A stretch of DNA of 64,000 nt from Microbotryomycetes sp. JL201 (Eukaryota > Basidiomycota > Microbotryomycetes). Where the stretch lies: positions 160,273-224,272 of the forward strand of contig JAQYUZ010000027.1 in the NCBI GenBank assembly GCA_033819885.1, in the 5' to 3' direction. Every line of letters begins with the position of its first letter. Position 1 is the first letter of the stretch. Of this stretch, positions 2,499 through 64,000 are shown piece by piece. Below the pieces are notes generated by a model. It saw nothing but the letters and a program-made list of their open reading frames with translations. It ran no database searches and was not told where the DNA came from. Made by a program: the position numbers and the translations under genes.

Positions 2499-4079
2499 AT
2501 GGCCATTGGACGCCGAGGATGGACTCGAACGGCGTTGTGCTGTGTCCTTGGCGTTGTCGTGCTCGCATCTTGGCGTAAGCACAAGCAGATCGGACGAGTT
2601 TCCGTCGGCACACGAGCTAAACGACTTGTCTTCGCGCAGATGCTCTACTGCACGAGAACAGTTCTGTGCACATGCGCGGTTGGCTTCTACAGGCGTCGGA
2701 CAACCGGTGGTCCCGTTTCAGAGCCGGCGGCTCCGCAGTTGTGCCAGGAGAGGACCTGCAAGCTGTCATTCGCAAAGGCACAGGCAACGTGTATTCAAGC
2801 GTCGACTGCCATGGCACCGAAGGCACAGCAAACCCTCTCGAGACTAAATGTCGGTTCCGCAATGTTTGCCTTGAACTGCTCGACCTGCCGGAGCACAGAG
2901 CCATGCTCGATGCGGATGTCAAAAACAACCCAGAGTATGTGCGATTGTCCTATTACAGGCCGGACTGGCTTGCAGAAGCTCCACTGTACTGGTAAGCTCG
3001 CACGCAAGCACAGTGGCGTTGAGGGAACAGCCTGAACTGAAAAGTTCTCGCCCAACACAGGTTCAAGGGCTATGCGAAGGACGGACCTTGGTCACGCGTC
3101 GACTGGGCCGGAACTCTCAAGCCCACACTTGTGAGCGGCACTGTGCCTCCAGACAGCCTTTGGTCGCCGGCAGAGACGACAATCCTGACGGAAGCATGGT
3201 GGCCGGAAAATTTTGGTCATGCACTCGGAGACGATTACCTACCCGTGTACAGACTGGCGCAATATTTTGATCGTTTCGACTCCGCCCGTCTTAGCGTGAT
3301 TTTCCATCCGTCATGCCAAGATCGCGGTAGTCCAGGAGAGGAGCGCGATAGAGGATGCTCTCACCACCTAGAAATATCCAACCTGCTCCTCGATACCCCG
3401 ATCATCGATGCCAACTCGAGTGCGCTGTTCAGAAAAAAAGGGCCTGTGTGCTTCAAGGAGCTGTTAGTCGGCACCGGCGGCGTTCGAATGGGATTCCCCG
3501 CGGAAGGTCATGTTTGGGTCAGTACAGCATTTGCCAAGATCGTATGGTTTGCTCAGAAGCCTTGCCTTGTGCCAGTCCGACTTTGCGTCGACGATCAAGA
3601 AGAGGTCCGGAATTGATCCAAGCTATCTGCCGGGGAAGCAGCGGATCACAATCATGTATAAAGCGCGAAAACGGTATGTTCTATGTCCCGAGAGTTTTGC
3701 ACCACGCTCAAGATTTCGTTACAGCACCTTCACAAACTACGACGAGCTGGTTCAAAGTCTGCGCGACCGTTTCAACGTCGAAGTTGAGCTACTTGACCCG
3801 AACGAGCTCAGTTTGACGGATCAGCTGGCAGTGTTAAGTCGGACAACAGTGCTCGTGTCTCCGTGCGGAGGTATATCGTTCTCCGCCGCATTTCTTCCGC
3901 CAGGGGCCAGCGCAGTCTTTTCCGATTATTGGGATACGAGGGCCAATCGCAGTTTCTCGATGGAGAAATACATCTTTACTCAAATGAGTGACTTGACTTC
4001 GTTCTACTATACAGTCGACAAGAAGGACGTCTCGGTCGACATTGAGAACGTCAGTCTGTTAAGAAGCATATCATTTTGA
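2499..4079 (+). CDS. GT61/DUF563-type glycosyltransferase, type II membrane protein
   Basis: Predicted Golgi glycosyltransferase of the GT61 (DUF563) family, whose known members move xylose, arabinose or GlcNAc. Four exons fit in frame: 2499-2574, 2640-2991, 3061-3517 and 3576-4079, joined by GTAAGC/GTAAGC/GTCAGT donors and CAG acceptors, giving about 462 residues. The N-terminus is a signal anchor (MAIGRRGWTRTALCCVLGVV). A CRFRNVCLE motif follows, typical of the start of the DUF563 lumenal domain, then ENFGHALGDDYLPVYRL, and near the C-terminus VLVSPCGGISFSAAFLPPGA, which matches the family's SxxGxGxxxxxFxxPG signature. The usual HG before A is CG here, a family variation that may or may not affect activity. 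Donor and acceptor sugars cannot be predicted. It lies 25 kb from the glycan cluster and could serve the same pathway. Confidence 0.85.
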
Positions 4080-27848: not shown

Positions 27849-29235
27849 TTACTGAAACGACCGACCATCTATCTTGCCCTGACGGACCCAGGTTTGGTAT
27901 GCCTCTCGTACGGCAGTGTCCGTGTTCTCGGGCGGGATCAAGGTGCCCAGCGGGCAATCCTTTGTCCAGGTATTGTAATAGTCGCCGAGCTTGCCTATCT
28001 TGTTGTCAATCAGAGCATGAGGAAGGCCGAGCACGAGACTGAAGATGTGGCCTGAAAGTGCGCAAGGCTTGTTCAGCTACAGAATCATGTCAAACATAGT
28101 CGGAATTGCTCACCATGCAAACGATCCAGAATCAAGTATTCACCCTGAGCGAGCCATTCCGCGCCCGTCATGAATCGCTTCCAAGTGCGGTATTGGATGT
28201 GACTGATTGACCCTGGCTCTGTGCCCTTCTCTTCAGCCGAGATGTCAAAGTCGCCGCTCCAGTCGCCAGCTTTGAACGTCAAATCTGGCTGGTTAGGAAG
28301 AGCGAGCGACTTGACGAAAGGTTCAGGGAAATCGGCACTGTTAGCGCCGCCCGCCCAGTCCCAATTCGTTCGCTCGCCATCTGCCCGCCTGAATAACAAC
28401 ACGTCGTACTGCGGTTCGCCGAAATGGGCTCGCAGTTCCGGCCGAAATCCCATGTAAAAGACGATATCGGGCGTCATGTCGATCCGAAGGCCACCGTGCG
28501 CAAAATTCTTCATCGCGAAATCATAAGATTGCGTGTCTCGGACAGCGATGGACGCATGCTTGAGTTTCGATAGGACGGCTTTGGTTTGCTTCATTGTTTC
28601 GTCCGATCTGAATTTCAAACTTTGAGGAAACACGTGCATCCTTGTGTCTGGGTATGCAGACATGACGTCCAGCTTTAGAGTATGCTCGCGCGTGTACAGG
28701 TCGCCAAAGTTGCCGCCCCCGTGAAACGCGATCGCAAAGTGGCTGCCCCCGTGCTCTTCGACAACTGAAGCGAGCGTTTCCATGTCGCAGTCTTTGACAC
28801 CGCACGAGTAGACAATGTTGATGCCGAGAGCTGCCAGCAGCATCGACTCGGCGACCATGATCGCGCTGTCGCCCTGCAGAGTTCCGACGTGAGCGATAGC
28901 AAAGGCGTCACGCTCTTCGCTGCACTCACTTTGTTTTCGTGGTCTGGAATCGAGATGAGAGCAATGTTGCGCACGCCATCAAACACGTCCGAAAATGTCT
29001 TGAACAGCAGGTTTTTCTGGTCGTTCATGACGCGCGCGCAAGCGTCTCTTGTCGCGTTTGTCATGGCGAACACGTCATCAGATGTCACGAGCGAGGAGCT
29101 TGTCTTTGATGACGCGTAGTATGACCTTGACGTCGACGTTGACGACAGCAGGAGCACAAACGCGACGACGGCGGCGACGGCAATCACGACGCGCTTGCGC
29201 TGCTGCAGCGACTGATACATCGGATGCGAGTCCAT
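27849..29235 (-). CDS. Polysaccharide pyruvyltransferase family protein A, type II membrane
   Basis: Golgi-type enzyme of the polysaccharide pyruvyltransferase family (PF04230; S. pombe Pvg1 adds pyruvate ketals to galactose). ATG at 29235 (complement) starts a short cytoplasmic part and an anchor (VVIAVAAVVAFVLLL), then a stem. Conserved blocks: NIALISIPDHENK, then after an intron GDSAIMVAESMLLAALG, FHGGGNFGDLY, TRMHVFPQSLKF, SIAVRDTQSYDFA, FRRADGERTNWDWAG, ILDRLHG, and after the last intron HIFSLVLGLPHALIDN and GKLGDYYNTWTKDCPLGT. About 430 residues. The closest relative in this window is 39837-41273, with which it shares intron positions after ENK and after RLHG. Donor would be phosphoenolpyruvate. 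It is divergent from the HYRYGDL protein at 29664. Confidence 0.9.
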
Positions 29236-29663
29236 TGCGGCGACCAGCGCAGCTCGATGATTATTTTCTTGGATGCGTCGAGGCGGCGTCTGGAGAAAGA
29301 GCAGCAATTGCTCCGTTCTGTGCTTTGGCGCGAGAGGCCCGAGCGCAGTCCGGGATCGACAAGTGCTCTTTGAGAATGCTAGACGACCACGCAGAATCAA
29401 TTTTTGATAGTTTTTTCAAGTGCCGGACCAGACTGCCTCTCGCCAACATGAGGTTGAGACTGATCTGCTGCGCGAGCGCGTCCTATCGCGGCCAGAATTG
29501 CAAACGCGTTTTCGGTTGTAGCCCGATACGCGCCTGGAGCGCGTCAGGGCACACGCGTCAATCCGAAAACATCCCTGACAGTCGACACAGCTGTCTGTCG
29601 TTACTGTCCACGTCATATCGGTTCGCGTGACACCGTGTTGGCTGATCGCGGCGGCATCGCACC
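29236..29663. promoter_or_regulatory. Divergent promoter region between two glycan genes
   Basis: About 430 bases separate the starts of pyruvyltransferase A and the HYRYGDL protein, so both probably use this stretch. No specific site is identified. Confidence 0.5.
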
Positions 29664-30794
29664 ATGGCGTCAGCTTATCAGCCACTTGGAGGCCATGGAC
29701 AGCCGAATAGCACAGCAATACACATCCAGGCGCCGTCTGCGCTGCCTGGCGCGGCTAGCGGACGGCGGACGCCGCACGCGATCAAGCTTGCCTTGGCGCT
29801 CGTGCTCGTCGCCGCCGTCATCTTGACCACGCGCGAGTTGCACTACGCTCATGACGTCGCTGGGCGGATACAATCCTCACTCGCCGCGTCGGGATGGCGC
29901 ATGCCATCTTCGACGGCGCCCCATACGACGGCCAAGTGTGTGCTCATCCAAGAAGGCGGACTCAACAGCGGCGGGTACGGCGACCAGGTTCGGTTAACGC
30001 ATAGGGCAGAGTTCATGGCTCAGGTGCTCGGCTGTGACTTCCTGCGGACGTACGTCGAGTCTGGACACGGATACGCCAGCTCAAACTTGTTCGCTCGCGC
30101 GTCCTCCAAACTTTCACTTGCTGCTCATCGCACTTGCGATGTCAGACAGGTTCTCGACGTCGCGTCAATCGAGGCAGACAACCATGACTGCGCACCCAAA
30201 ATCACAGGCGACACGTCAGAATGCGACATTTATACGTACGCCCCCCGAGGCTTGTTCTACAACAGTAACAAGCTGGCATGCGTCGCCAATCGATTGCGTG
30301 AAAAGATGGTCGTGCCAATCACAAAGTCTCGACCGGGCTGCGAGTCTGGCTACGGCGCGCTTCACTATCGGTACGGCGACTTGGCAAGCGCAGCTGGAAA
30401 CGATTTCCGCACGACGAGCACGATCGAGCTGGACGACGCAATCGACATGATGAAGTCTAGATACGGATTCTCGGATGAATGTGTCGTTGTCTTTGCCGAA
30501 AAGTACCCACATCGGCGGATCGCAGGGACAAAGCAGGGCCACGTTATCGACAATGGCACGGATCCGATTCAGGCCATGAGCGACATGGCGGGCGCAACAG
30601 TCTTGTTTGGAGCAGCCAGTGGATTCATGTTGCCGATCGTCCTCATGTTTGACGGCAAGCAAATCATCGTGCCCCCAGGCGTCAAGCACAGGTTCGAGGG
30701 CTTGCCTCGGAACACCGTCGAGCTGACAGAGTCACGTGTCGAAATGACGAGGATCTGGCCCGTCCACCCGGAGGATCAGCCTCAGTCTCAGTGA
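29664..30794 (+). CDS. Type II membrane protein A with HYRYGDL motif, fucosyltransferase-like
   Basis: Single-exon 376-residue protein. After ~40 cytoplasmic residues there is one membrane anchor (IKLALALVLVAAVILTT), then a stem and a lumenal domain. The segment GALHYRYGDLASA resembles the HxRxGD nucleotide-sugar motif of GT11/GT23/POFUT fucosyltransferases. The C-terminal pattern AMSDMAGATVLFGAASGF followed by LPIVLMFDGKQII looks like the donor-side Rossmann part of such GT-B enzymes. The early segment EGGLNSGGYGDQVRL also fits a glycine-rich family start. A paralogue at 48082-49389 shares HYRWGDLA and the ASTSGF segment. Fucosyl transfer is inferred from motifs and from the nearby GDP-fucose-type transporter; other GT-B activities remain possible. 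Confidence 0.65.
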   Translation: MASAYQPLGGHGQPNSTAIHIQAPSALPGAASGRRTPHAIKLALALVLVAAVILTTRELHYAHDVAGRIQSSLAASGWRMPSSTAPHTTAKCVLIQEGGLNSGGYGDQVRLTHRAEFMAQVLGCDFLRTYVESGHGYASSNLFARASSKLSLAAHRTCDVRQVLDVASIEADNHDCAPKITGDTSECDIYTYAPRGLFYNSNKLACVANRLREKMVVPITKSRPGCESGYGALHYRYGDLASAAGNDFRTTSTIELDDAIDMMKSRYGFSDECVVVFAEKYPHRRIAGTKQGHVIDNGTDPIQAMSDMAGATVLFGAASGFMLPIVLMFDGKQIIVPPGVKHRFEGLPRNTVELTESRVEMTRIWPVHPEDQPQSQ

Positions 30795-31340: not shown

Positions 31341-34300
31341 TTACGAAGTCGTATATTTGAGCGGATTGTGACCAAAGATTTGATTAAAACGACGTATGCA
31401 GTTTGTTCGCGTTGCCATATGTCCTGGTCTCGACCAGAGTCCGGCATTGTTCTGGCTGACGATTGGTGCAGCCCACGCGTCTATGACTGCAGAGACAATA
31501 TGCAGAGACAATATGATCAAATTTGATAGTTTGTTATTGAGCAGATCACTTACCAATCGGGCCGCGTCTGGTCTCGTTAGCCACGACATAGTTCATGAGA
31601 ATATCTTCACAATTCATACGTTGATCGACTATGCCCAGTACGTCTGGCGGCAGGTCGAGTGAGTATTTTCGGAGGTATTTGCGGTGAAAGATGATGCCGG
31701 ATCTGCAGAAATGTACACATCAGCGCGCTGCTGCCAAAGCACTTGGGAGTGGCCAGTATACGTTAGAACAAGAGAATAGAACGGTCTCAATGTGCCCATG
31801 CGCTCAGGCGACAGGTAAGTCGCGGAATAGTAGGTGCGCTCTTCTCCATGGAACTCGCGAGTGATCTGTAGCAAGTAAGACATGATAATTACTCGGGTGG
31901 ATTGGTGTGACATGATGATTACTCGGGTGGATTGGTGTGAACTCACATGGTTCCGACCCTGATGCGAAAAGCCAACGAGGCTGTCCCAGAAATGGCCACG
32001 CCATGTGTCAATTCCGTATCGCAAGTGTTCGTGCGGCATATCCCAGTCTGGAGTGGTACAGCATAAGCAGTGAGTCAAAGCTTGAAAAGCAACGCGGCTT
32101 GCCGTCGTCCTGAGAATCGGGTAGTACCCAAGTAAGGTCAGCGAAATTCTGCCCGAGCAGGCTCCATGAAACTGACCATCTGAACCACACAATCATACTT
32201 GATTGCAGGCCAGGGAAAAAAGCGATTGTTCAAACTGTCTTTCGTCATCTTGACGATTTCGACAGGTACGGCCAAGTTCTGAAAGTTGGTCTGGGTGGGA
32301 AGGGGCTCGTCCAGCTTGCTCCACAAGATCAGTATCTGGCCAAGACGATCATCGAGTGCCTGGTAATAAGCCACTCGATCCATGTATGTTTGAGTCCGGC
32401 TAAAAACTGGCATGATAAGCGTGCATTTATCGAAAGTCTTCACGAGAGTAGTTCCGGACGGCAAGGCATCGATGTCTTCCACGACGGCGTCATGCAATGT
32501 AAGGACTCGTAGCGATGCTAGCGAGGGGTATTTCTGTAGTTTGGTAAAGTCGGCCGATCTTGGAAGCAAAGGCACAGTGAACTTTGCCTCAATGACCTTG
32601 CGGCCGGCAACGTTAGAGACTTTGTCGTTTGTACCGACTTCGACATGATTCGTTCTACCGGAATGCAGTCAGCGGGTGCAAGGGCACAGAGAAGACTTAT
32701 CGGACTCGCGAATAGGAGTAGCCGCTTGGCAGGTTAGGGTATATCAGGTAGCTTCCCGTCTCCACAAGCCACCGTAGATAGTATTCTGAGAAGGCACATT
32801 TGTTAGCCATTATTTTCAGAACCCTCTGGTAACTTGCTCTTCCAACTCTGCAGAGATGAATCAATGTAAGCCTTCTATATCAAAGCTCGACTGTATATGG
32901 TCTCTGGTAGCTCATCACTCACGTTGACGAAAGGCCAGCGATTTGTCATGCTGTGTGGTACAAGCGGGTCTACATCTGCCGGAAATGCATGGCACCATTC
33001 CAAGAAATGTGTCCAAGCTTTAGGCAGCAAAACTGCGCCCCAGCTCTGCGGGTGCTGATATGCAAACGGGACGGGTGGTCCCCGTGCTGCAAGATCGCTG
33101 AAATTTTCGAGGACCTCATTATATCGAGGATTGTACAGCGATATCCCAGCAAGACGTGCATCGGCGTGGTCTCGGTAAACGTAGCTGCGGACCATATTCT
33201 CTGCATACCGCAAAAAGTATGGCGAGACCTCGATGTCGTCCTCCTGCGATGGACCCCGATCAGTGTGTGCAGACTGACGATAATGCAACAATAACTCACC
33301 AATAGTATAGCAAACTCATGTGAACTCCGAGGTTCCCAGCTTGCTAGGACAGCCTGGCGCAAGCCAAGAGGCCGGTTGCGCCATTTGACGCTGACGCTCT
33401 TGAACGACTCAGAGTGATGTGCCCACTCGGAGATGTACTTTTCGTAAGCTTCAACGTCTCTCGAAGTCCTTTCTGGATCCGCATCAACCTGTATATCCAC
33501 TAGTACTGTAGAGGTGATGGGGCTCGCTGCCCTCACCGACTCGCACAGACGACGAAAGCTCCAGAACCGGTTCTTGGTGAGGATGGTGATTCTAAAAACG
33601 GCATTGTTAGGTGTCGTGTTATCGTTGTGAGAGTTGACGCGTCTTGCGAGACGAATAGGGGGCGCGTTCTTGATCAGCCGGGTTCGACTGAGAGATGAGT
33701 GGCGCAAGTCGTAAAACCGGTCGACACGATCAAGGATCCAATCGACGCTGTAGTCAGAACCCTTCCAGACCTTCGGTTCGGCAATGTCTGCTTTTGTGAG
33801 CTCTCTGCCCCACCGCTGCTGGGGATGGTGCATGCCCGATCTCAGGAATGCTTGGTACGCATCGTTGAGCGGGTACTCGTACGGATGGCGACTAGCGGGT
33901 ACATAGGCGAGACCATCCTTGATGACTGCTCCACCTTGTGCTACATTGTCCATGTTGATTGTATTGTTGTATCGGAGGGTATTAATTCGAATCGCATGTT
34001 CTCGAAAGACCATGGGGCCGAACATCTGCAGCGCTCGAACGAGTCAACATCAAAAGCCTCCCGACCGGAGAAAAATCTGGATCACTTGGAGAAAATGAGC
34101 ACCAAGTGTCCATTTGCCTGTAAAACCGCCTTCTCCTCGTGGAGACATGGGCTGCGCCAAATTATCGTCAGCGCAAAAGCTCAAGCCAGCGTGCTCAGGC
34201 CGTACGAAGAACAGGGGCAGCACACTGTGGTGATATAACACCATTCCATTATCAAACCCGGTTAAAGGAGCTACCTCTTTCGTCGCGAATGCGGCTTTGA

Positions 34301-34881
34301 GCTCTTTCATACCGTCAAATCGCACGTCTCCGACGTCCCAAGGAAAGCCCGCGATAGCAGGATAATAGCGCGAAATGATTCGGACAAGTTCTTTTGCGTG
34401 GTCGCGATGTTTCGCTTTAGAGCCTGTGTAAAAGCGAAGATCGTCGTCGTGTGCTGGATCGGCCTGTCAGTCAGTGCCCGGTCACTGAAAGCATTGTCCC
34501 GCTGAACTTACTGAAAATGTAATCGCATCGATGCGATCGAGTCACTGCCTGCACAGCTTCCCACAAGCCATCGGTAAATGGCAAAGCTTGCTCATGTGCT
34601 TGGGGCTCGAGCACAATGAATGGGGCTTCAACTGCACGAGTAGCCCGCGAATGCGGCCTGTCGTGCTCGCCCCACACGTAGAATGCCGACGGAAATCTGC
34701 CATGCCAGTGGGTATATACCTCGGCTGCCTTGGCGTACGTCTCTGCGTTCCCGACCAAACAGATCTCGACCGTGCGCGACAAATCCGACTGCAGCGGCGG
34801 CCACTTGTAAAAGAGTGTCAGGATAATAGCAAGAGTGGTTGCGATTGGCTTCCATCGCCGGCGCCTTGTCACACGAGGCAT
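31341..34881 (-). CDS. Multi-module glycosyltransferase ending in an exostosin-like GT64 domain
   Basis: A ~970-residue type II protein built from about 13 exons. ATG 34881 (complement) starts a basic tail and anchor (IATTLAIILTLFYKWP). Module 1 (first ~330 residues) has DYIFTHDDDLRFYTG, GFPWDVGDVRF and FGPMVFREHAIRINTLRYNN, and matches no family I can name. Module 2 begins RITILTKNRFWSFRRLCESV and carries FAILLEDDIEVSPYFLRYAE, like GNT-I/GT2 enzymes. Module 3 is GT64: TLIMPVFSRTQTYMDRV, VVQM-DDD-WDMP, FYSLVLTSGIIFHRKYL, NCEDILMNYVVANET, and after the last intron SRPGHMATRTNCIRRFNQIFG to TAA 31341. Modules 1 and 2 are linked within one open exon (32970-34025); modules 2 and 3 by in-frame splices. 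Known GT64 enzymes act in heparan sulfate or sphingolipid glycosylation; the substrate here is unknown. It may be regulated with the neighbouring GT43 gene, which is on the same strand upstream. Confidence 0.8.
31881..31940. repeat. 30-bp tandem duplication inside an intron
   Basis: Two copies of a 30-bp unit (31881-31910 and 31911-31940, one mismatch near the start) lie within the intron between GFSHQGRNH and ITREFHGEERT of the GT64 fusion. The intron's GTGAGT donor and CTACAG acceptor flank the copies. Confidence 0.85.
32103..32109 (-). other. Candidate 7-nt microexon encoding the GT64 acidic motif
   Basis: The upstream exon ends VVQM with a GTCAGT donor; the downstream exon starts at 32047 with AC TGG GAT ATG. 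Only by adding GACGACG from 32103-32109 (acceptor CTCAG, donor GC) does the frame become DDDWDMP, the expected GT64 aspartate triad. An alternative 16-nt exon using GTTGCT as donor also keeps frame but gives DDGKPHWD. Confidence 0.65.
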
Positions 34882-35418: not shown

Positions 35419-36426
35419 TCATGCAATCCAAGTCGCGCTCGGCAAGTTGTCTTCGGCCGAAGCGAAGCCGCGAACGACCTGTAGACTGCTTGCCGGTTTT
35501 CTGGCGAGTATGGCGCTCGTCACCCAATCCGCGTCGTAGTATGCCGCAACGGCAGATTGCTTTGGGCTGTCGTGCCACACGTGGACCGTCTCCAGAAGGT
35601 GCTTTGACAAGACGAATCGAGCACCTGTGCGCTCTATCAGGCTCAACATGTCCGTCTCGAGAAAGCCGGTCTCTGACTGATGTGAAAATCGAATGTGTGG
35701 CGGAGGGGCGCCTTTGAGCACGCTCGAATGAAAGGCGAAGCCAGCCATGTCAATGTTCCAGCGTCTCCGGCACAGATCACAGCACCAGTGCGATATTCGC
35801 ACCCCCTCATCTTCGTCACCATCCACGTGATCGACAATCACGGGGCCTTCAAAACCGAAATAGCCCAGATTCCCAACAGGAAAGATTGTGAACGAGCTGG
35901 GCGGGATCGTTGCAAGTGTCTCGATCAAAGCACTTTGGATCGTATTGTCGTCGTCCGCAAAATAGATCACTCCTGCCTTGTTGTATTTCTGAATGAAGTC
36001 CAGGGCGAAGTTGCGCTGCTCTATGCCCCTGTGCTCGCCTTGCCGAGACGCCCTGCAAGCCATGTACTTGTGCGGGATTTGAAAGTCCGACAACAGTTGA
36101 GTCACAGCCGGATCAAGCTCATTCGCATCCTCGATGACAAGCCATAAGATGTTCGTGTGCGCTGCGGCAAACGCAAGGGTAAGGGCTTGTCCTAAGCTGA
36201 CTAGCGTCGCGAACCGCGTCAGACGGTCATATGTCTGCACAGATTGGCATGTTCAGCTAAGCAGTGATTTGACGCCGGAGCCAACCGCACGCACGGGAGT
36301 CACGACGAATACGGTTGCTCTTCCCGACGACGCAGTTGGCCGAGTCAGCCTCAAGAAGCCGAAGAAACAAATGGTGATGATCAGCGCTGCAGCGACCGTG
36401 ACCGCGCGCACGGTCACGCGAGCCAT
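35419..36426 (-). CDS. GT43-family glucuronosyltransferase-like enzyme
   Basis: Type II Golgi enzyme of family GT43, known for beta-1,3-glucuronosyl transfer in animal proteoglycan linkers and xylan synthesis in plants. Exon 1 has the anchor (VAAALIITICFFGFL) and ends FVVTP at a GTGCGT donor; a CAG acceptor at 36230 joins it to TYDRLTRFATL, completing the hallmark VTPTY. Then come NILWLVIEDA, RGIEQRNFALDFI (family RN pair), the metal-binding GVIYFADDDNT, FPVGNLGYFGFEGP, WNIDMAGFAFHSSVL and FLETDMLSLIE with the catalytic-type Glu, and VWHDSP. Length is about 315 residues, normal for the family. An upstream in-frame ATG at 36579 would add ~50 residues. GT43 is rarely reported in fungi as far as I know. 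It sits upstream of the GT64 fusion on the same strand, 537 bp apart. Confidence 0.9.
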
Positions 36427-36929: not shown

Positions 36930-37307
36930 ATTGTCTGGGTCCGACCTCGTCACACTGGGCTGAGACGTTGAGTGCAGTGTTCCTTGTTGCTCGCTTGTCT
37001 GGGTCCGACCTCGTCACACTGGGCTGAGACGTTGAGTGCAGTATTCCTTGTTTCGTATTGTCCGCCGGCGAGCATTCCGCCGAGTTGTTCTCGCTGCTGT
37101 TTTGCAGACTGTGTTCCCTGCGAAATCCACCGGTCGCTGACGATGCTGAGAGCACTTGCCGAGGAATCTTGGCCGAGCGCGCCGTAGACTAACATACTAC
37201 GGCTAAGGCGACGAACGGTACTCACCTGCCATTGGCTGCACAGGAACAGGCGCAGGTGCAGACGCAGCAGGCGAATCTGGAGGTCTCAGGTGTTTCACAC
37301 AGCGCAT
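36930..37307 (-). CDS. Possible small gene whose 3' end was tandemly duplicated
   Basis: A two-exon minus-strand model from ATG 37307 (MRCVKHLRPPDSPAAS) with a GTGAGT donor and TTAG acceptor continues as YGALGQDSSASALSIVSDRW and a Gln-rich part (GTQSAKQQREQLGGML), then ALNVSAQCDEVGPRQ. That last segment falls inside the 64-bp tandem duplication; since 64 is not a multiple of three, the second copy is read in another frame and the C-terminus is altered. No family recognised. Confidence 0.3.
36931..37053. repeat. 64-bp tandem duplication, two copies
   Basis: The unit starting TTGTCTGGGTCCGACCTCG occupies 36931-36994 and is repeated at 36995-37053 with a few differences at its far end. The near identity suggests a recent event. 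Confidence 0.9.
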
Positions 37308-38519: not shown

Positions 38520-39604
38520 TCAAACCTTTTCGTTGCTCTCCATGGATATTCCGGTCATTTGCATGCCACCGGCATCCTGTGAGCTCGTAGGCAGAGGTGC
38601 ATATGTGCCCTGCGCTTTCTCCTGTGCTTTGCTGTAAGAGTACACCCCGGTCCCGCCGATGATGAATATGGTTGATACCCAGCGATGGAATGGCATTGCT
38701 TCGTGAAAAGCAACCGACGCGAGCAATGATTGCACCACGCCGCGAGTAGCGGTAACGACCGTGTGTGTGACTGGCGACGTCATCTTGACCTGCATCCATG
38801 TAGCAAATGACAGGGCGAGAGCGACAAATGCACAAATGACGGCGTTTGTGATGAACAAGTGTTGCTTGTCGAGCGACGCGGCGTGCCACGATTCGGCTTC
38901 GAAGATGTAAACTAGTGGCGCGTACACAACGGCAGCCAGCGCGTTCGACATGTAGATCAATTGGAGCATATGTAAGTCGTTGCCTGCCGAGTATTGTTTG
39001 AGCACGACTGTTTCGACCGCTGTCGTGAACGAGGACCACACGCCCAGCGCGATTCCCCAATTGAGTGAAAGCGCCTTTTCTAGGTCGACCCAGATACCAA
39101 ACACGAAGCCAACAACGACAAGGGTGATACCGGCGATCGTCAATGGTGCGAAACGCGTGTTGGGTAGGAAATACAGCGACAAGATGACTGTGAACGGCAG
39201 CAAGAGGCCCCTCGCGGTCTGATAGAACGCGGCGTCGACGTTGGCCAGGCAAGCCGTTTTGCTTAGAGCGCCCAATATCCTTGTCAAGCCGAGCGGCAGA
39301 AAAGTCCGCCACACCTGCAGAGTGTGCGGGGGTGAGATTTGGTTGCAACGTCCCGAGAGCTGACACTAACCACGAGCGGCTTGCTGATCGAGATTGATGC
39401 GGCAGGATATGCTTTAGCCACAATGAGCAAGATAACCAGGCTGACAAGCGACTGGATCCACAGACTGGCAAGGCTGAGCTTGAGGACGCGTAGGACGGCC
39501 TTGGAAGCGAGCGTGAACCCGATTGCGAGCGTCGAGTGTGTCAGCACGATCGCCATAATGTGCGACGTTGCAGTTTGCGCCACAGGCGCCGGTGACGGTG
39601 CCAT
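38520..39604 (-). CDS. Nucleotide-sugar transporter, GDP-fucose type (SLC35C-like)
   Basis: Golgi nucleotide-sugar/TPT family transporter of about 340 residues. ATG 39604 (complement) leads to helices TLAIGFTLASKAVLRVL and LVSLVILLIVAKAYP; a GTTAGT donor and CTGCAG acceptor join PLV to VWRTFLPLGLTRILGALSKT. Then ANVDAAFYQTARGLLLPFTV matches the conserved segment of GDP-fucose transporters (V-x-FY-x-x-ARxLxxPF). Later helices: LTIAGITLVVVGFVFGIWVD, LHMLQLIYMSNALAAVVYAP, and SPVTHTVVTATRGVVQSLLA. The tail is polar and ends at TGA 38520. The substrate call (GDP-fucose) rests on that central segment and on two fucosyltransferase-like genes nearby. It is divergent from pyruvyltransferase B, whose ATG lies 233 bp away. 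Confidence 0.8.
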
Positions 39605-39836
39605 CTTGCGGCAGGAAAGCGCGCTCCCGCGTGCGGGAACCCGTTTTCGAGTGTCGATCGATAAAGCGCGCCCGTTCTAATTTATCGTGCACAAGTAATA
39701 ACCCACGCATTCTATGCCGAAAGTCTGTTATCCATCTTGTCGATTTACGAGTGCTGAATAAACCTACAATGGCCGAGCTCTGTCCAAAGCAAAGACTTGA
39801 ACGCGCTTGCATGCCCCGAGCTTTCCACTACTACTT

Positions 39837-41273
39837 ATGTTCGGACGGAGAGCCTGGTACGCGCTCCTAGGTCTCGTTGCGCTGCTGCTGATCGTCTGCA
39901 CGACACCGCGTTCACGGGCGAGGCTTCTGTCGTCGTCACCGGACTTCCTCGCGTCAAGTGCAGCTGTGCACGCTGCTGGTGCATCCTCGTTCACCGTCTC
40001 GAACGCGGCCAGAGACGCGTGCGCGCAGGTTATCGATCGACAACGAAGACATTTGTTCGGAGTATTCTCGCAAGTCTTTGACGGTGTACATAACATTGCT
40101 CTAATATCGATGCCAGACCATGAGAACAAGTGCGTCCGACTTTATTTCTTTCAACTCCGCGCTGAGGGGAACCTGGCAGGGGAGACTCTGTCATTTTCGT
40201 AGCAGAGCAACTCGTATTGGCCAGCCTCGGCATCAACATCCGATATGTGTGTGGAGTCAAGGACTATGACTTCGAGGCCTTGAGAGAAGTCGTTGAGGAG
40301 CACGGCAAAGACCGCTTCGCCATCGTCTTTCATGGCGGCGGCAACTTTGGCGACTTGTACGGAAGAGAACACGAGCTGAAACTGTCAGTAATGAACTCGT
40401 TCCCGCATGTGAGTTGGACACGCCTTCTTCCCAGCGTAGCGACACTAACGAGGTTCTTCAAAGGTCCGCATGCACGTCTTCCCTCAGTCCATCAAATTCA
40501 GAGAGGACGAGCAGGTACAGCACACGCGCAATGTCCTATCTGCATTGACACACCCTCGCAACTCGATCGCCGTCAGGGACGACCAGAGCTACGATTTTGC
40601 GCGGCGACACTTTGATTTGCCCAATTTGCGCATCGACAAGACGCCAGATATTGTGTTTTTTATGGGTGAGCGACCAGAGCTGAGAGACTCGTTGAGGCCT
40701 CCAACGCCAAAAGACATCCTGTTTTTCAGACGGCGGGACGTCGAAAAGTCTGATTGGGCTTGGGCCGGAGGCGCAGAGAAAGCCGATTTCCCGAAGACTT
40801 TCGTGCAGAGTCTTGTTCAGGCAGTCTCTCGCCACAAGAAGTCTACACTCTCTTTCGATGCAGGCGATTGGATTGATTGGGATTTGACGGACGAAGAGCG
40901 ACGAGGGGGCCACATTCAGTTCCGAGCATGGCAGCGCTTCATGACGGGCGCGCGGTGGCTCAGCTCGGCGGACTTCATTGTCCTCGATCGGCTGCATGGT
41001 GAGCTTGAGGCTGAAACAGAAGGCAGCATATGGCTGAGGGGCCACTCGATTTGTCTTGCAGGTCACATCGTCTCGCTTCTTCTCGGCATACCGCACGTGG
41101 CAATTGACAACTCTATCGGCAAATTGTCAGACTATTACTCGACCTGGACGAAAGACTGTCCACTCGCAACACTCGTGATCCCAGATCCGAATCGGCCTCA
41201 AGACACAGCGAAGAAAGTCACAGACGCATACAGGCACTGGGTCGAGCAGGGTCATCTTCAGAGGACGTCTTGA
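39837..41273 (+). CDS. Polysaccharide pyruvyltransferase family protein B, type II membrane
   Basis: Paralogue of the gene at 27849-29235. ATG 39837 starts MFGRRAWYALLGLVALLLI, a signal anchor; the longer upstream frame begins with TTG and is not used. Conserved blocks: NIALISMPDHENK, then after an intron GDSVIFVAEQLVLASLGINI, FHGGGNFGDLYGREHELK, MHVFPQSIKFREDE, SIAVRDDQSYDFA, FRRRDVEKSDWAWAGG, IVLDRLHG, HIVSLLLGIPHVAIDN and GKLSDYYSTWTKDCPLAT, ending at TGA 41273. It shares two intron positions with copy A and has one more, 40409-40463, before RMHVFPQS. Predicted to add a pyruvate ketal to a terminal sugar of a surface glycan in the Golgi. Confidence 0.9.
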
Positions 41274-60462: not shown

Positions 60463-61725
60463 ATGCCACATCAGAGCTACGCCAATGCCGTACAGCAACC
60501 AAAGCCACCCGACTTACAACATCCAACGCATTACACCTTGTTGACCTCGACGAGGGAGTACGCCTATCGAGTGACTGCCCCATCAAGCTGCACACCCCTT
60601 GACCTCCGAAAGGGATTTGCGGCAGCTTTCCCCGACCTTCTTACATCCTCTTTCTTCTACGAGCGAGGCCAATGCCTCCTGCACGTCCCTGACTCCGCGA
60701 CAGCCGAGGCGAGGACGCGCATGGAAGCGGAAGGCTTCGTAGTCAACCACTGCACAGTGTCTTTGACACCCTTGCACCATGTAACGGGTCCACTGACAAT
60801 CCTTGAAGGCCAGGTAACCGGCCTCATGCCCCAACAAGATGCCGTTGCCGAGCTTCGGCGCATGTTGAATGACTACGGCGTCGTCCTACAATTAGTCATC
60901 GACAAATGCAAGGAGACCAACATGTCTCTCGGCACTGCTCATTTTGCTTTGAGTATCACTGACAAAGACAAAGTCCCTCCCCGTCACATGAAGATTCTTT
61001 ATGCCAACTCAGAGCAACACGTCACCGTTTCCGTAACGGCGAGACTGGGCACCCAGTTTTGCCAATACTGCCGATCTACCGAACATCCTCGCTCCCAGTG
61101 CAAGAAAGCCCCTCAGTGCACCAACTGTGGCGAACGCACTCACCATGTCCTTCACTGCCGCGCTCGAAAGGTCGCTCCTCCCCCCCACCGAGTGGCGACA
61201 GGCCCCGCAACTACCGCCTCGCCTCCAGCCCCAACGTCCACCACTACCGCAGTTTTACCTGTGACAGCGTCCTCAGGTGCTCCTGCACCTACTCCTCTTG
61301 CTCTAGCTCCAACGTCCACCACCACCGCAGCCGCACCGACGCCATCGACCTCAGGCGCAAACAAGAAGCGCAAGCTCCCAGGAAGATCGCCTGCAAAACG
61401 ACACCAAGCCATCAACTCTGGCCATGGCTTTTCCTTCACACCCAACGCCTTCGCAACCCTGTCTCAGGCTGAAGCTCCCGCGCCTCGTACCTCCGAAGGA
61501 GGAGACAATGATAAGGGAACCGAAGCTGACCCCACACTTCCCCCTGATCAAAGCAGTCCGGGCCCTCCCGCGCCTGCTACCCTCGAGGAGAACGATGAAG
61601 TGCCACAGAGCGCTGCGCCACTTGCCCAGACCGGGCAAGCATCCGCGCCCCCAGCGCCCGCAATCCTTCCGCCCAAGGCACCGGGGATCGTTCCCGGCAA
61701 CCAAGCCATGGATCAGGATGCCTAG
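60463..61725 (+). CDS. LINE ORF1, gag-like zinc-knuckle protein
   Basis: About 420 residues from ATG 60463. The same frame is open upstream as far as 60172, but that part reads through the tRNA gene and is not part of the protein. The middle holds two CCHC-type knuckles, CQYCRSTEHPRSQC and CTNCGERTHHVLHC (C-x2-C-x4-H-x4-C), for nucleic-acid binding. A Pro/Ala/Thr-rich low-complexity part follows, including a Lys/Arg cluster (NKKRKLPGRSPAKR), a likely nuclear signal. It ends MDQDA with TAG at 61723, overlapping the ATG of ORF2 by eight bases. It should package the element RNA into an RNP. Confidence 0.88.
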   Translation: MPHQSYANAVQQPKPPDLQHPTHYTLLTSTREYAYRVTAPSSCTPLDLRKGFAAAFPDLLTSSFFYERGQCLLHVPDSATAEARTRMEAEGFVVNHCTVSLTPLHHVTGPLTILEGQVTGLMPQQDAVAELRRMLNDYGVVLQLVIDKCKETNMSLGTAHFALSITDKDKVPPRHMKILYANSEQHVTVSVTARLGTQFCQYCRSTEHPRSQCKKAPQCTNCGERTHHVLHCRARKVAPPPHRVATGPATTASPPAPTSTTTAVLPVTASSGAPAPTPLALAPTSTTTAAAPTPSTSGANKKRKLPGRSPAKRHQAINSGHGFSFTPNAFATLSQAEAPAPRTSEGGDNDKGTEADPTLPPDQSSPGPPAPATLEENDEVPQSAAPLAQTGQASAPPAPAILPPKAPGIVPGNQAMDQDA

Positions 61726-64000
61726 TCGCCCGAATTTCAAAGTTATGCTCATCAATGTGCAAAGCATTGCAGATGGGCGCAAACGCAATCAATTGTTTTC
61801 CCTGCTCTCTCGACAACATGCTCACCTTTTCATCCTCACAGAAACAGGCGGACCGCGAACTCAAGCCGAGGCAAACCTGTGGACTGATGATCTGCTCGCT
61901 TACGGTTTCTCCTCCCATTTTGTCACACCAGGGCAGGTGGCCCTCGCCTGGCAGACCGACTACCCGGGACTGTCGATTATCGAGAATTCACTCAACTCGG
62001 CGACCCGAGGCTCTCCCTTTTCCGACCGCGTCATTGACGCGACCTTTGCAATCGGCGACTCGCTCACCACGGTCGTCGGAGTTTATCCTCATTCCGGACT
62101 TGCGAACCGCGGACCGCGTGACGAGTTTATGGAAGACCTTACCCGAAGACTTCTCAACCGGCCGGACCGCGACAGCAATTTGCTCGTCGGCGGTGACTGG
62201 AACTGCGTCGAAGATTCGCGGATAGACTCCAGTAACGCTCAGGAGCCTGACGACGGGGAATCCATGCGTGATTTGGCAATTCACTTAGGGCTCACTGACG
62301 CCTTTCGCCACCTTTACCCACAGAAATACGCCGCAACAAATTTCCCCTACGCGCCCGGACATGCAGCACGGCGGCTTGACCGCTTGTACATCTCTGGGGG
62401 CTTACTCCGTCTCTTCAAGCGCCACCATATCTCGCCGCAGAATGCGCTGGTGACGTCAACCCACTGTCCTGTAGGCTTCCACTTTGATTTACCAGGCGCG
62501 GTTGAGATCGGACCCGGCAAGTTCAAGCTTGGTCTGTATCTGCTTGATGGCCATGGCCCTTTCCTCCGGGACCTGGTAAGACGTCTACACGCTGAGTCTC
62601 TTGCCTCTCATCCACACCACCCGTGGCGAGCTTGGCTGGCCACCAAGCTGGCTCTTCACCCTCATCTCACACAGCTTGCTCGCCACATGTCAGCCTTCAT
62701 TCGGCGACACGACCCGCGCCAGTTCGAACGGAACGGTCATGACAGTGCCGCCTTACGAGCTCGCTTACATCCGAGCCTCACGGGCCACAGCTCGCTCAAG
62801 ATCCGCCTCCGGCAAGTCCGGCAGGGGGCGCTGATACCATCCTTCACCGAAGGGGACCGTGAGCTCACCTCGCCGAGCGATATGCTCGACCATGCGAGAC
62901 GCTCTTTTCAGGACCTCTATCAGCACCGAGGCAGCGACCTCAACAGTCGAAGCGATGCTTTTCGCGAAATTCGCGATAAACAGCGTTTGCCTGACGAAGC
63001 AGCTGCTTCACTTGACCGAGATTACAGCATCAACGAGCTTCGTAAAGCCCTCAGTCAATGCAATAAGCTGTCGAGCCCAGGACCCGATGGCCTGCCTTTT
63101 CAGTTTTACGTGGAGACCTGGGAAGTCACCGGCCCAATTCTTCTAGCGGCGCTGAACTCCCTCCCGGAGCAGGACATCCACTCGATGCCGGTCACCGAGT
63201 CGCACATCCACCTGCTCCAGAAGGACGCGCCCGACCCAACCCTGTTGACCAACAAAAGACCGCTCTCGCTCATCAACACGGATGAGCGGTTCTTTAGTCA
63301 GGCTCACAACCGGCGCCTGGCGCCACAGCTGCTGTCGATCGTCCAGAAGACACAGACCGGTTTCATGCCTGGCCGCCACATTGACGAGAACATAGCGTCT
63401 ATGCAGTTGGCCATGGATGAACCAACAGGTCCCGAAGGATTCACTCAGTCGCTCGCTGATGACGCCCTCGTGGCCGTTCTTGACTTTCAGAAGGCTTATG
63501 ATCGCTTGTCCCACGAGTACCTCGACGCGGTCCTCGCCACCTTTGGCTTCGGACCCCGCGCCCGACAATGGTACCGCTGCACGTATGCAGGGCATGCTGC
63601 CCGCGTCTTCATTAATGGCTGGCTGTCCTCGCCTTTCGAACTCAACTCTGGCGTGCGACAAGGCGACCCCTTGGCGCCGAGCCTTTTCGCACTCGCCATC
63701 GAACCGCTCGCCGCACTGATTCGAAAACGGGTCTTCGGCCGACCATCGACTCACAAGGTAGCAGGACCATATCGAGGAGTGCCCATATACCCGAGGGGGG
63801 TTCGGGCCAATCCTGCTCGACGACTGCCAGACAACCGCGTCCCTGACCGGAACCTGCGATTGCGAGAGCTACTCTTTGCTGACGATGTCGCATGTGGGCT
63901 CAGGGATCACGATGACGCCGCACTTCTTCGACGCTGCATTGAGGAGTACTGTAGAGCCAGCGGCAGTGCCCTCAACGCAGCAAAGTCCTTCCTCTATGCC
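61718..64000 (+). CDS. LINE ORF2, endonuclease and reverse transcriptase, partial
   Basis: About 761 codons without a stop up to the window end. The N-terminal apurinic-type endonuclease (EEP) domain shows its catalytic blocks in order: LINVQSI (Asn), LTETGG (Glu), GGDWNCV (Asp/Asn), ARRLDRLYIS (Asp) and STHCPV (His). After a linker the reverse transcriptase shows LSSPGPDGLPFQFY, AVLDFQKAYDRLSHEYL, NSGVRQGDPLAPSLFALAIE and LLFADDVACGL with the catalytic ADD. The EEP-plus-RT layout places it in the L1/Tad/CRE-like APE clades. The ATG overlaps the ORF1 stop (ATGCCTAG), pointing to coupled translation. The remaining C-terminus is outside the window. Confidence 0.93.
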   Translation, partial: MPSRPNFKVMLINVQSIADGRKRNQLFSLLSRQHAHLFILTETGGPRTQAEANLWTDDLLAYGFSSHFVTPGQVALAWQTDYPGLSIIENSLNSATRGSPFSDRVIDATFAIGDSLTTVVGVYPHSGLANRGPRDEFMEDLTRRLLNRPDRDSNLLVGGDWNCVEDSRIDSSNAQEPDDGESMRDLAIHLGLTDAFRHLYPQKYAATNFPYAPGHAARRLDRLYISGGLLRLFKRHHISPQNALVTSTHCPVGFHFDLPGAVEIGPGKFKLGLYLLDGHGPFLRDLVRRLHAESLASHPHHPWRAWLATKLALHPHLTQLARHMSAFIRRHDPRQFERNGHDSAALRARLHPSLTGHSSLKIRLRQVRQGALIPSFTEGDRELTSPSDMLDHARRSFQDLYQHRGSDLNSRSDAFREIRDKQRLPDEAAASLDRDYSINELRKALSQCNKLSSPGPDGLPFQFYVETWEVTGPILLAALNSLPEQDIHSMPVTESHIHLLQKDAPDPTLLTNKRPLSLINTDERFFSQAHNRRLAPQLLSIVQKTQTGFMPGRHIDENIASMQLAMDEPTGPEGFTQSLADDALVAVLDFQKAYDRLSHEYLDAVLATFGFGPRARQWYRCTYAGHAARVFINGWLSSPFELNSGVRQGDPLAPSLFALAIEPLAALIRKRVFGRPSTHKVAGPYRGVPIYPRGVRANPARRLPDNRVPDRNLRLRELLFADDVACGLRDHDDAALLRRCIEEYCRASGSALNAAKSFLYA

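What the first reader, a model, noticed from the sequence alone, without database searches (positions are those of the whole stretch)
31341..34881. Single protein with three glycosyltransferase-like modules
One type II membrane anchor is followed by three modules, each with an acidic metal-site-like motif: THDDDL, LLEDDIE (GNT-I-like) and DDDWD (GT64). Modules 1 and 2 share an uninterrupted exon, so that fusion is solid; modules 2 and 3 are joined by in-frame splices. Such a protein could build a repeating or linker oligosaccharide by itself. I do not know this architecture from described GT64 proteins.
Basis: partly seen in the sequence, partly recalled or inferred. Interest (0 to 1): 0.85.

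Follow-up and report, generated by a model that had tools for sequence, protein, structure and literature searches.

The report
Fungal three-module sugar-transferase fusion protein
A fungal gene appears to encode one probably membrane-anchored protein with three successive sugar-adding-enzyme-like modules, only the last of which belongs to a well-known family, and it sits among other genes that look suited to building an acidic cell-surface sugar chain.

Summary
A 12-exon gene on the minus strand (34881 to 31341) encodes a 965-residue protein: a short N-terminal hydrophobic segment, module 1 (THDDDL), module 2 (LLEDDIE) and module 3 (DDDWD). Module 3 is a confident GT64 domain (Pfam 1.1e-52; EXTL3, EXT1, EXT2, EXTL2). 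Module 2 is only sub-threshold GNT-I/GT13-like (E 0.009-0.038). Module 1 has no credible match in Pfam, NCBIfam, PHROGs or PDB sequences; calling it a glycosyltransferase rests on motifs. Weak points: no cDNA, a 7-nt micro-exon, GC donors. Neighbours are a GT43, a nucleotide-sugar transporter-like gene and two paralogous pyruvyl transferases. Best reading: a Golgi protein adding up to three sugars to an acidic surface glycan. Three-GT proteins are known in giant viruses, GT64 fusions in animals; my searches found no described protein with this combination, but no eukaryotic sequence collection was available. New variant of a known kind.

The parts
31341..34881 (-). triple-module gene, 12 exons, 965 aa
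   Evidence: in-frame codon bias best of six in 12 of 12 exons; branch-point strings
34512..34881 (-). exon 1: N-terminal RRRRWK + short hydrophobic segment (about aa 12-28), start of module 1
34086..34453 (-). exon 2: module 1 core with HDDDL
33300..34025 (-). exon 3: end of module 1 and N-terminal half of module 2 in one open frame
32923..33243 (-). exon 4: module 2 EDDIEVSP...
   Evidence: sub-threshold GNT-I PF03071
32823..32874 (-). exon 5 (least certain; a one-intron route 32922-32826 skips it and keeps the frame); the following intron is only 37 nt
32710..32785 (-). exon 6, followed by GC-AG intron 32709-32655
32177..32654 (-). exon 7: end of module 2, linker and start of GT64 in one open frame
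32103..32109 (-). 7-nt micro-exon GACGACG, encodes first two Asp of DDDWD; GC-AG intron follows
   Evidence: ungapped GT64 alignment to EXTL3 across it
31341..32047 (-). exons 9-12 (32047-31947, 31865-31762, 31702-31554, 31486-31341): rest of GT64 with NCED motif
35419..36426 (-). neighbour: GT43 protein, 315 aa, 2 exons, N-terminal hydrophobic segment (by eye)
   Evidence: PF03360 3.6e-31; glucuronyltransferases of the B3GAT type in PDB; spliced
29646..30794 (+). neighbour: single-exon ORF with N-terminal hydrophobic segment (by eye) and HYRYGDL; putative transferase, family unknown
   Evidence: no credible Pfam or PDB match; fucosyltransferase-like by recalled motif only
28088..29415 (-). 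neighbour: pyruvyl transferase A (main ORF 28088-28978; exon ends not worked out)
   Evidence: PF04230 6.1e-14
38523..39676 (-). neighbour: nucleotide-sugar transporter-like gene (exon ends not worked out)
   Evidence: PF03151 TPT 9.3e-11 in ORF 38523-39365
39801..41270 (+). neighbour: pyruvyl transferase B (exon ends not worked out)
   Evidence: PF04230 6e-11 in ORF 40449-41270; 54% identical to A over 186 aa

Best explanation
The gene encodes one Golgi-type protein (short cytosolic tail, probable membrane anchor, long luminal part) with three GT-A-like modules in series. The C-terminal GT64 module most likely transfers an alpha-linked N-acetylhexosamine (or another sugar) by a metal-dependent retaining mechanism; module 2 most likely adds a beta-linked sugar in the GT13 manner; module 1 is a diverged GT-A-like module of unknown donor. 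The modules act one after another, releasing the chain between steps, on the same acidic surface glycan that the neighbouring GT43 (GlcA or Xyl transfer), transporter-like protein and pyruvyl transferases help to make. Shown: the open frames, the GT64 and GT43 families, the gene neighbourhood. Inferred: Golgi location, activity and donor of every module, order of action, the glycan.
For: Gene model and motifs; in-frame coding bias best of six in 12 of 12 exons; exon 3 open across the module 1/2 boundary (a given 242-codon frame is open in 0.00015 of Markov stretches); branch-point strings in 10 of 11 introns; no Met between aa 312-504 and 588-718, so no intact separate module 2 or GT64 start. 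GT64 PF09258 1.1e-52 over profile positions 2-236 of 245, with LNNRF, DDD and NCED matched to EXTL3, and, by eye on that alignment, counterparts of the acceptor residues R, Y, H, R that PMC7185993 lists for EXTL GT64. Weak GNT-I-like match ending just past LLEDDIEVSPYF. Module 1 shows, by eye, DDD, a glycine loop and ADD in the order DxD, G-loop, xED that one search gives for the GT-A core. Co-located GT43, TPT and two PF04230 genes. Bi-domain exostosins carry two transferases in one chain and are argued to be non-processive (PMC9178029, passages).
Against: No family or structure match for module 1; module 2 is below the Pfam cut-off (13.2-15.2 vs 25.4 bits). Single-sequence fold of exon 3 had mean pLDDT 39.1 and no significant fold match. 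No transcript data. Two of 11 introns need GC donors, one exon is 7 nt and one intron 37 nt; exon 5 is optional. In EXTL3 the partner GT47 site is apparently inactivated, so modules 1-2 here could be too. No glycan structure and no identified organism. The C-terminal VWHDS of the GT43 differs from the VWHTR that I recall for GlcA-transferring GT43s, so its donor is open.
Confidence: 0.5

Rival explanations
1. Only the GT64 module is catalytic; modules 1 and 2 are decayed or scaffolding GT-A-like domains that position the GT64 site or bind the acceptor, as discussed for the GT47 part of EXTL3.
For: Precedent in EXTL3 (PMC9178029, passages); modules 1 and 2 are strongly diverged from the families searched.
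Against: Both keep an acidic DDD/EDD motif in a plausible place.
Confidence: 0.25
2. A gene-model artefact: two or three adjacent genes (or alternatively spliced transcripts) that I joined.
For: No cDNA; GC donors, a 7-nt exon and a 37-nt intron are needed; 45 two-intron in-frame routes exist between exons 7 and 9 if GC donors are allowed; a 159-codon open frame like exon 7's occurs somewhere in 327 of 1000 Markov copies.
Against: Exons 3 and 7 cross both module boundaries in one open frame with no in-frame Met to start a complete module 2 or 3; branch-point strings in 10 of 11 introns; GT64 aligns without a gap across the micro-exon. (The routes keep the frame by construction and do not count here.)
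Confidence: 0.1
3. A fungal co-polymerase: two or three modules alternate to polymerise a repeating chain, like EXT1/EXT2.
For: GT64 is one of the two chain-building domains of exostosins; the locus looks like one for an acidic glycan.
Against: No GT47 match in the protein; [quoted passage not shown]
Confidence: 0.1

Closest known systems
EXT1, EXT2, EXTL3 (GT47 + GT64) and EXTL2 (GT64)
   Same: GT64 domain aligned nearly end to end, DDD and NCED motifs, GT64 fused to other module(s) behind an N-terminal membrane segment
   Different: No GT47 found by Pfam; two other modules upstream; fungal; DDDW where EXTL3 has DDDA
Chlorovirus PBCV-1 A111/114R (PMC7826918)
   Same: One 860-aa protein with three putative GT modules of about 300 aa, proposed to add three sugars of one glycan (abstract and passages)
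   Different: Modules resemble galactosyl-, xylosyl- and fucosyltransferases; viral; 'GT64' does not occur in its main text
Megavirus chilensis Mg539 (PMC10117803, PMC9614988)
   Same: Protein with three GT domains near a pyruvyl transferase gene (passages)
   Different: Viral; 'GT64' does not occur in either main text; resemblance of layout only
STELLO proteins (PMC4906169)
   Same: Golgi type II proteins with a diverged GT-related domain plus a second domain; distant relatives reported in fungi, with Mixia osmundae in the sequence set (passages)
   Different: Neither DUF288/STELLO nor the GT75 family was reported by Pfam for module 1 up to E 10
GT64 genes of Cyphobasidium/Tremella lichen yeasts, Rhizomucor miehei and Fusarium indicum
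   Same: Fungal GT64 annotations (PMC8355462, PMC4023604, PMC10712836; passages)
   Different: Domain architectures not given in the passages I saw

Membership tests
GT64 (Pfam PF09258) | profile match above cut-off over full length | tested here: met
   179.3 bits vs cut-off 21.3, profile 2-236 of 245
GT64 (Pfam PF09258) | LNNRF, DDD metal motif and NCED motif | tested here: met
   aligned to EXTL3 without gap at these places; DDD depends on the micro-exon
GT64 (Pfam PF09258) | retaining HexNAc-transferase activity | not testable with these tools
   needs enzyme assay
Exostosin (EXT/EXTL3) bi-domain family | GT47 domain N-terminal to GT64 | tested here: not met
   no GT47/Exostosin Pfam match in the 965 aa up to E 1; the 8 exostosin sequences in PDB match aa 711-963 only; the ninth hit was a chance ribosomal one at E 0.48
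GT13 / GNT-I (PF03071) | profile match above cut-off | tested here: not met
   13.2-15.2 bits vs cut-off 25.4, profile about 86-215 of 434
GT13 / GNT-I (PF03071) | EDD metal motif after a Rossmann-like first half | tested here: inconclusive
   LLEDDIEVSP present; single-sequence model gives a beta-alpha-beta-alpha-beta run at block-mean pLDDT 52-77 only
GT-A fold (module 1) | DxD, G-loop, xED, C-His in order (PMC7185993, passages) | tested here: inconclusive
   DDD at 126-128, glycine loop, ADD at 218-220 and a later His by eye; no profile support; fold not predicted
STELLO/DUF288 and GT75 (module 1) | Pfam match | tested here: not met
   not among matches up to E 10; HMMER filters may hide weak ones
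GT43 (neighbour) | profile match and ADDDN motif | tested here: met
   109 bits vs cut-off 27; alignment to glucuronyltransferase I

The most novel reading that the evidence does not exclude
A fungus carries an animal-linker-like pathway in compact form: a GT43 puts on glucuronic acid, and one three-module protein extends it, its GT64 module adding HexNAc to the GlcA-ended acceptor and modules 1 and 2 adding two further sugars, giving a pyruvylated acidic surface oligosaccharide built by a single-protein assembly line, with module 1 founding a new GT-A family.
Probability: 0.15. Interest if true: 0.85.

Novelty: new variant of a known kind. Interest (0 to 1): 0.55.

Why it matters
Proteins with three GT domains turned up in my phrase search only in papers on large viruses (4 of 4 papers); a fungal Golgi-type one would test whether fused modules channel a glycan or merely keep enzymes together. 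It also bears on what GT64 and GT43 enzymes do in fungi, where heparan sulfate is not known (PMC8355462), and offers a candidate locus for fungal glycan pyruvylation beside fission yeast Pvg1 (PMC6801904, passages).

Tried and rejected
Homologue searches gave nothing: viral contigs with modules 1, 2 and 3 (0, 2 and 5 pattern matches, none confirmed), genome contigs with module 2 (37 pattern matches, none confirmed), tblastn of the whole protein against plasmids and phages, EDDIEV and EDDVEV DNA patterns in viral contigs (1 and 14 stretches; no credible relative of any module, best E 0.055). None of these collections is of eukaryotic genomes, so absence says nothing about fungi. I left 3 of 8 viral scans and the second genome-contig scan unused for that reason; modules 1 and 3 were not scanned in genome contigs.

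Are the modules copies of one another? blastp best E between modules was 0.088 (m2/m3); hhalign scores of the single sequences did not exceed the top of 20 shuffles for any pair. No support at sequence level.

Structure: AlphaFold on exon 3 alone (aa 247-488) gave mean pLDDT 39.1; on the neighbour ORF 29664-30791, 36.7. Foldseek of the first: 495 matches at E<=10, none at E<=0.001; among the 50 shown I recognise one glycosyltransferase, 2wvk at rank 44, E 1.2. I draw nothing from it. The fold of complete module 1 or 2 was never predicted.

Splice alternatives (which lists only in-frame routes): with GT donors only, 7 one-intron and 8 two-intron routes link exons 7 and 9 and none gives DDD; the single GT-only route from exon 6 to exon 7 drops 21 residues; 8 one-intron and 10 two-intron routes link exons 4 and 6, so exon 5 could be skipped. 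I kept the model that fits the GT64 alignment and, for exon 5, a GNT-I resemblance that I recalled.

Searching 'Mixia osmundae' was a guess at the organism; it led to the STELLO paper but not to an identification. The organism remains unidentified (no genome held); 'fungus' rests on a Pfam match to the fungal efflux-pump family TRI12 and short introns. Papiliotrema EPS (PMC9728225, passages) carries sulphate and phosphate, and 'pyruv' does not occur in its main text, so it is no precedent for pyruvylation. (96,048 papers, 15 listed) and the Tremella paper PMC12289600 (passages) added nothing.

Full report
WHAT IS THERE. The minus strand between 34881 and 31341 carries a 12-exon gene with a 965-residue product. 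Introns are 37-81 nt; 9 of 11 are GT-AG and 2 are GC-AG (donors at 32709 and 32102). The frame used scores best of six by codon log-odds, trained on eight other stretches of the window (one of them the unclassified ORF 29646-30791), in 12 of 12 exons. Exon 12 is marginal and some introns overlap the exon range, so this supports the model without fixing each boundary. A YTRAY string, as at branch points, is present in 10 of 11 introns against a Markov mean of 4.1 (0 of 500 sets reach 10); the stricter CTRAY in 6 of 11 against 2.2 (5 of 500 reach 6). I had noticed one of these strings, in intron 5, while choosing the model.

IS IT ONE PROTEIN. Exon 3 (34025-33300) covers the end of module 1 and the first half of module 2 without a break. 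A given 242-codon frame is open in 0.00015 of Markov stretches, and an open frame that long occurs anywhere in 14 of 1000 Markov copies of the gene. Exon 7 (32654-32177) covers 78 residues before the Pfam GT64 match and about 80 of it; its length alone is weak evidence (0.00175 for a given frame; 327 of 1000 for any). There is no Met between residues 312 and 504 or between 588 and 718, so neither module 2 nor GT64 has a start of its own that would leave it whole. The routes enumerated at three doubtful joints were filtered to be in frame, so they show which residues may be lost, not that modules join. The fusion is firmer than the finding states, though cDNA is lacking.

THE THREE MODULES. Module 3 (aa about 711-963) is GT64: PF09258 at 1.1e-52 over nearly the whole profile, and PDB sequence matches to EXTL3, EXT2, EXT1 and EXTL2 with E 3e-28 to 5e-23. 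LNNRF, DDD and NCED align to EXTL3 without gaps. A GT-A survey names R181, Y193, H289 and R293 of the EXTL GT64 domain as residues of the acceptor pocket for the glycosaminoglycan linker (PMC7185993, passages); by eye on the EXTL3 alignment counterparts appear kept (GRNH/GRYH, a Tyr, and H-x3-R), not tested on a structure. Module 2 (aa about 385-650) gives only a sub-threshold GNT-I match, E 0.0093 to 0.038 depending on how the piece is cut, ending just past LLEDDIEVSPYF; PDB sequences gave one chance ribosomal hit. Module 1 (aa about 36-345) had no match in NCBIfam, PHROGs or PDB sequences, and in Pfam only a chance-level YqcI_YcgG at 0.07-0.11. It shows THDDDL, a glycine loop (TGFDNG) and CADDN in the order DxD, G-loop, xED. 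That is a motif argument, not a demonstration.

MEMBRANE ANCHOR. The most hydrophobic 17-residue stretch is IATTLAIILTLFYKWPP after RRRRWK, mean 1.17, hardly above a stretch inside GT64 at 1.12. Its position and flanking charge favour a type II anchor; its strength does not prove one.

SURROUNDINGS. Between about 28.1 and 41.3 kb lie, in order: pyruvyl transferase A (PF04230), a single-exon ORF with HYRYGDL and no family, the triple gene, a GT43 (PF03360 3.6e-31; B3GAT-type glucuronyltransferases in PDB; 315 aa), a TPT-type transporter and pyruvyl transferase B, 54% identical to A over 186 residues. A and B face opposite ways and frame the set. I gave Pfam ten sequences from this stretch; shorter ORFs were not scanned. 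A GT61 lies at about 3.5-4.1 kb; ALG6/8 at 25.5 kb is ordinary ER glycosylation. This is what a locus for an acidic surface glycan would look like; I infer that, since no product is known.

HOW IT MOST LIKELY WORKS. GT64 enzymes are retaining and bind UDP with Mn. In exostosins the two sites of one chain lie 45 to over 60 angstrom apart, from which the authors argue for a dissociative mechanism (PMC9178029, passages). I take the same here: three luminal modules each add one residue to a shared glycan, without channelling, alongside GT43 and pyruvylation. Shown: sequence, families of module 3 and GT43, neighbourhood. Inferred: everything about activity. The main rival is that modules 1 and 2 are non-catalytic.

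WHAT IS KNOWN. GT64 is said to be reported from fungi only a few times (PMC8355462, on Cyphobasidium and Tremella, passages); it is listed for Rhizomucor (PMC4023604, passage) and, with GT43, for Fusarium indicum (PMC10712836, passage). A 103-fungus survey lists GT43 in 3 basidiomycetes and in no other phylum (PMC3652786, passage), which the Fusarium listing contradicts. Three-GT proteins are described from giant viruses (PBCV-1 A111/114R, PMC7826918, abstract and passages; Mg539, passages). Searches (5 of 5 papers listed; 25 of 72; 25 of 100; 20 of 24; 4 of 4; 11 of 11) listed no paper whose title or abstract start describes a GT64 protein with two further non-GT47 modules; they cover open-licence papers only, and no eukaryotic sequence collection was on hand. 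So the architecture is new to me, not proven new.

AN ODD DETAIL. In all three modules an intron lies at most 5 nt upstream of the first acidic codon of the metal-type motif (5, 0 and 0 nt). Eleven introns placed at random do this for all three in a fraction 5e-06 of 200,000 trials (one trial) and for modules 1 and 2 alone in 4.8e-04. This was noticed after the fact, the phases differ (1, 0, 0), and the third case was partly chosen to make DDD, so I list it as unexplained. One consequence is testable: leaving out the 7-nt micro-exon would shift the frame, so its splicing could switch the GT64 module off.

Noticed in passing
28088-29415 (-) and 39801-41270 (+): Two paralogous polysaccharide pyruvyl transferases (54% identity over 186 aa) in opposite orientation frame the glycosyltransferase genes.
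   Followed up: partly
32109-32103: 7-nt micro-exon encoding two Asp of the GT64 DDD motif, followed by a GC-AG intron; skipping it would shift the frame inside GT64.
   Followed up: partly
introns ending at 34454, 33244 and 32110: An intron sits within 5 nt upstream of the acidic motif in each of the three modules; unexplained, noticed post hoc.
   Followed up: partly
29646-30794 (+): Intronless ORF with N-terminal hydrophobic segment and HYRYGDL, no credible Pfam or PDB match; perhaps a diverged fucosyltransferase-like enzyme (motif recalled).
   Followed up: partly
3468-4076 (+): GT61 domain (PF04577 3.3e-10), another glycan gene outside the core cluster.
   Followed up: no
36931-37052; 31879-31940: Pair of 58-bp direct repeats, 98% identical, between GT43 and the transporter; a 32-bp direct repeat inside intron 9 of the triple gene.
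   Followed up: no
61307-64000 (+): Retrotransposon-like ORF with endonuclease and reverse transcriptase domains, running off the window.
   Followed up: no
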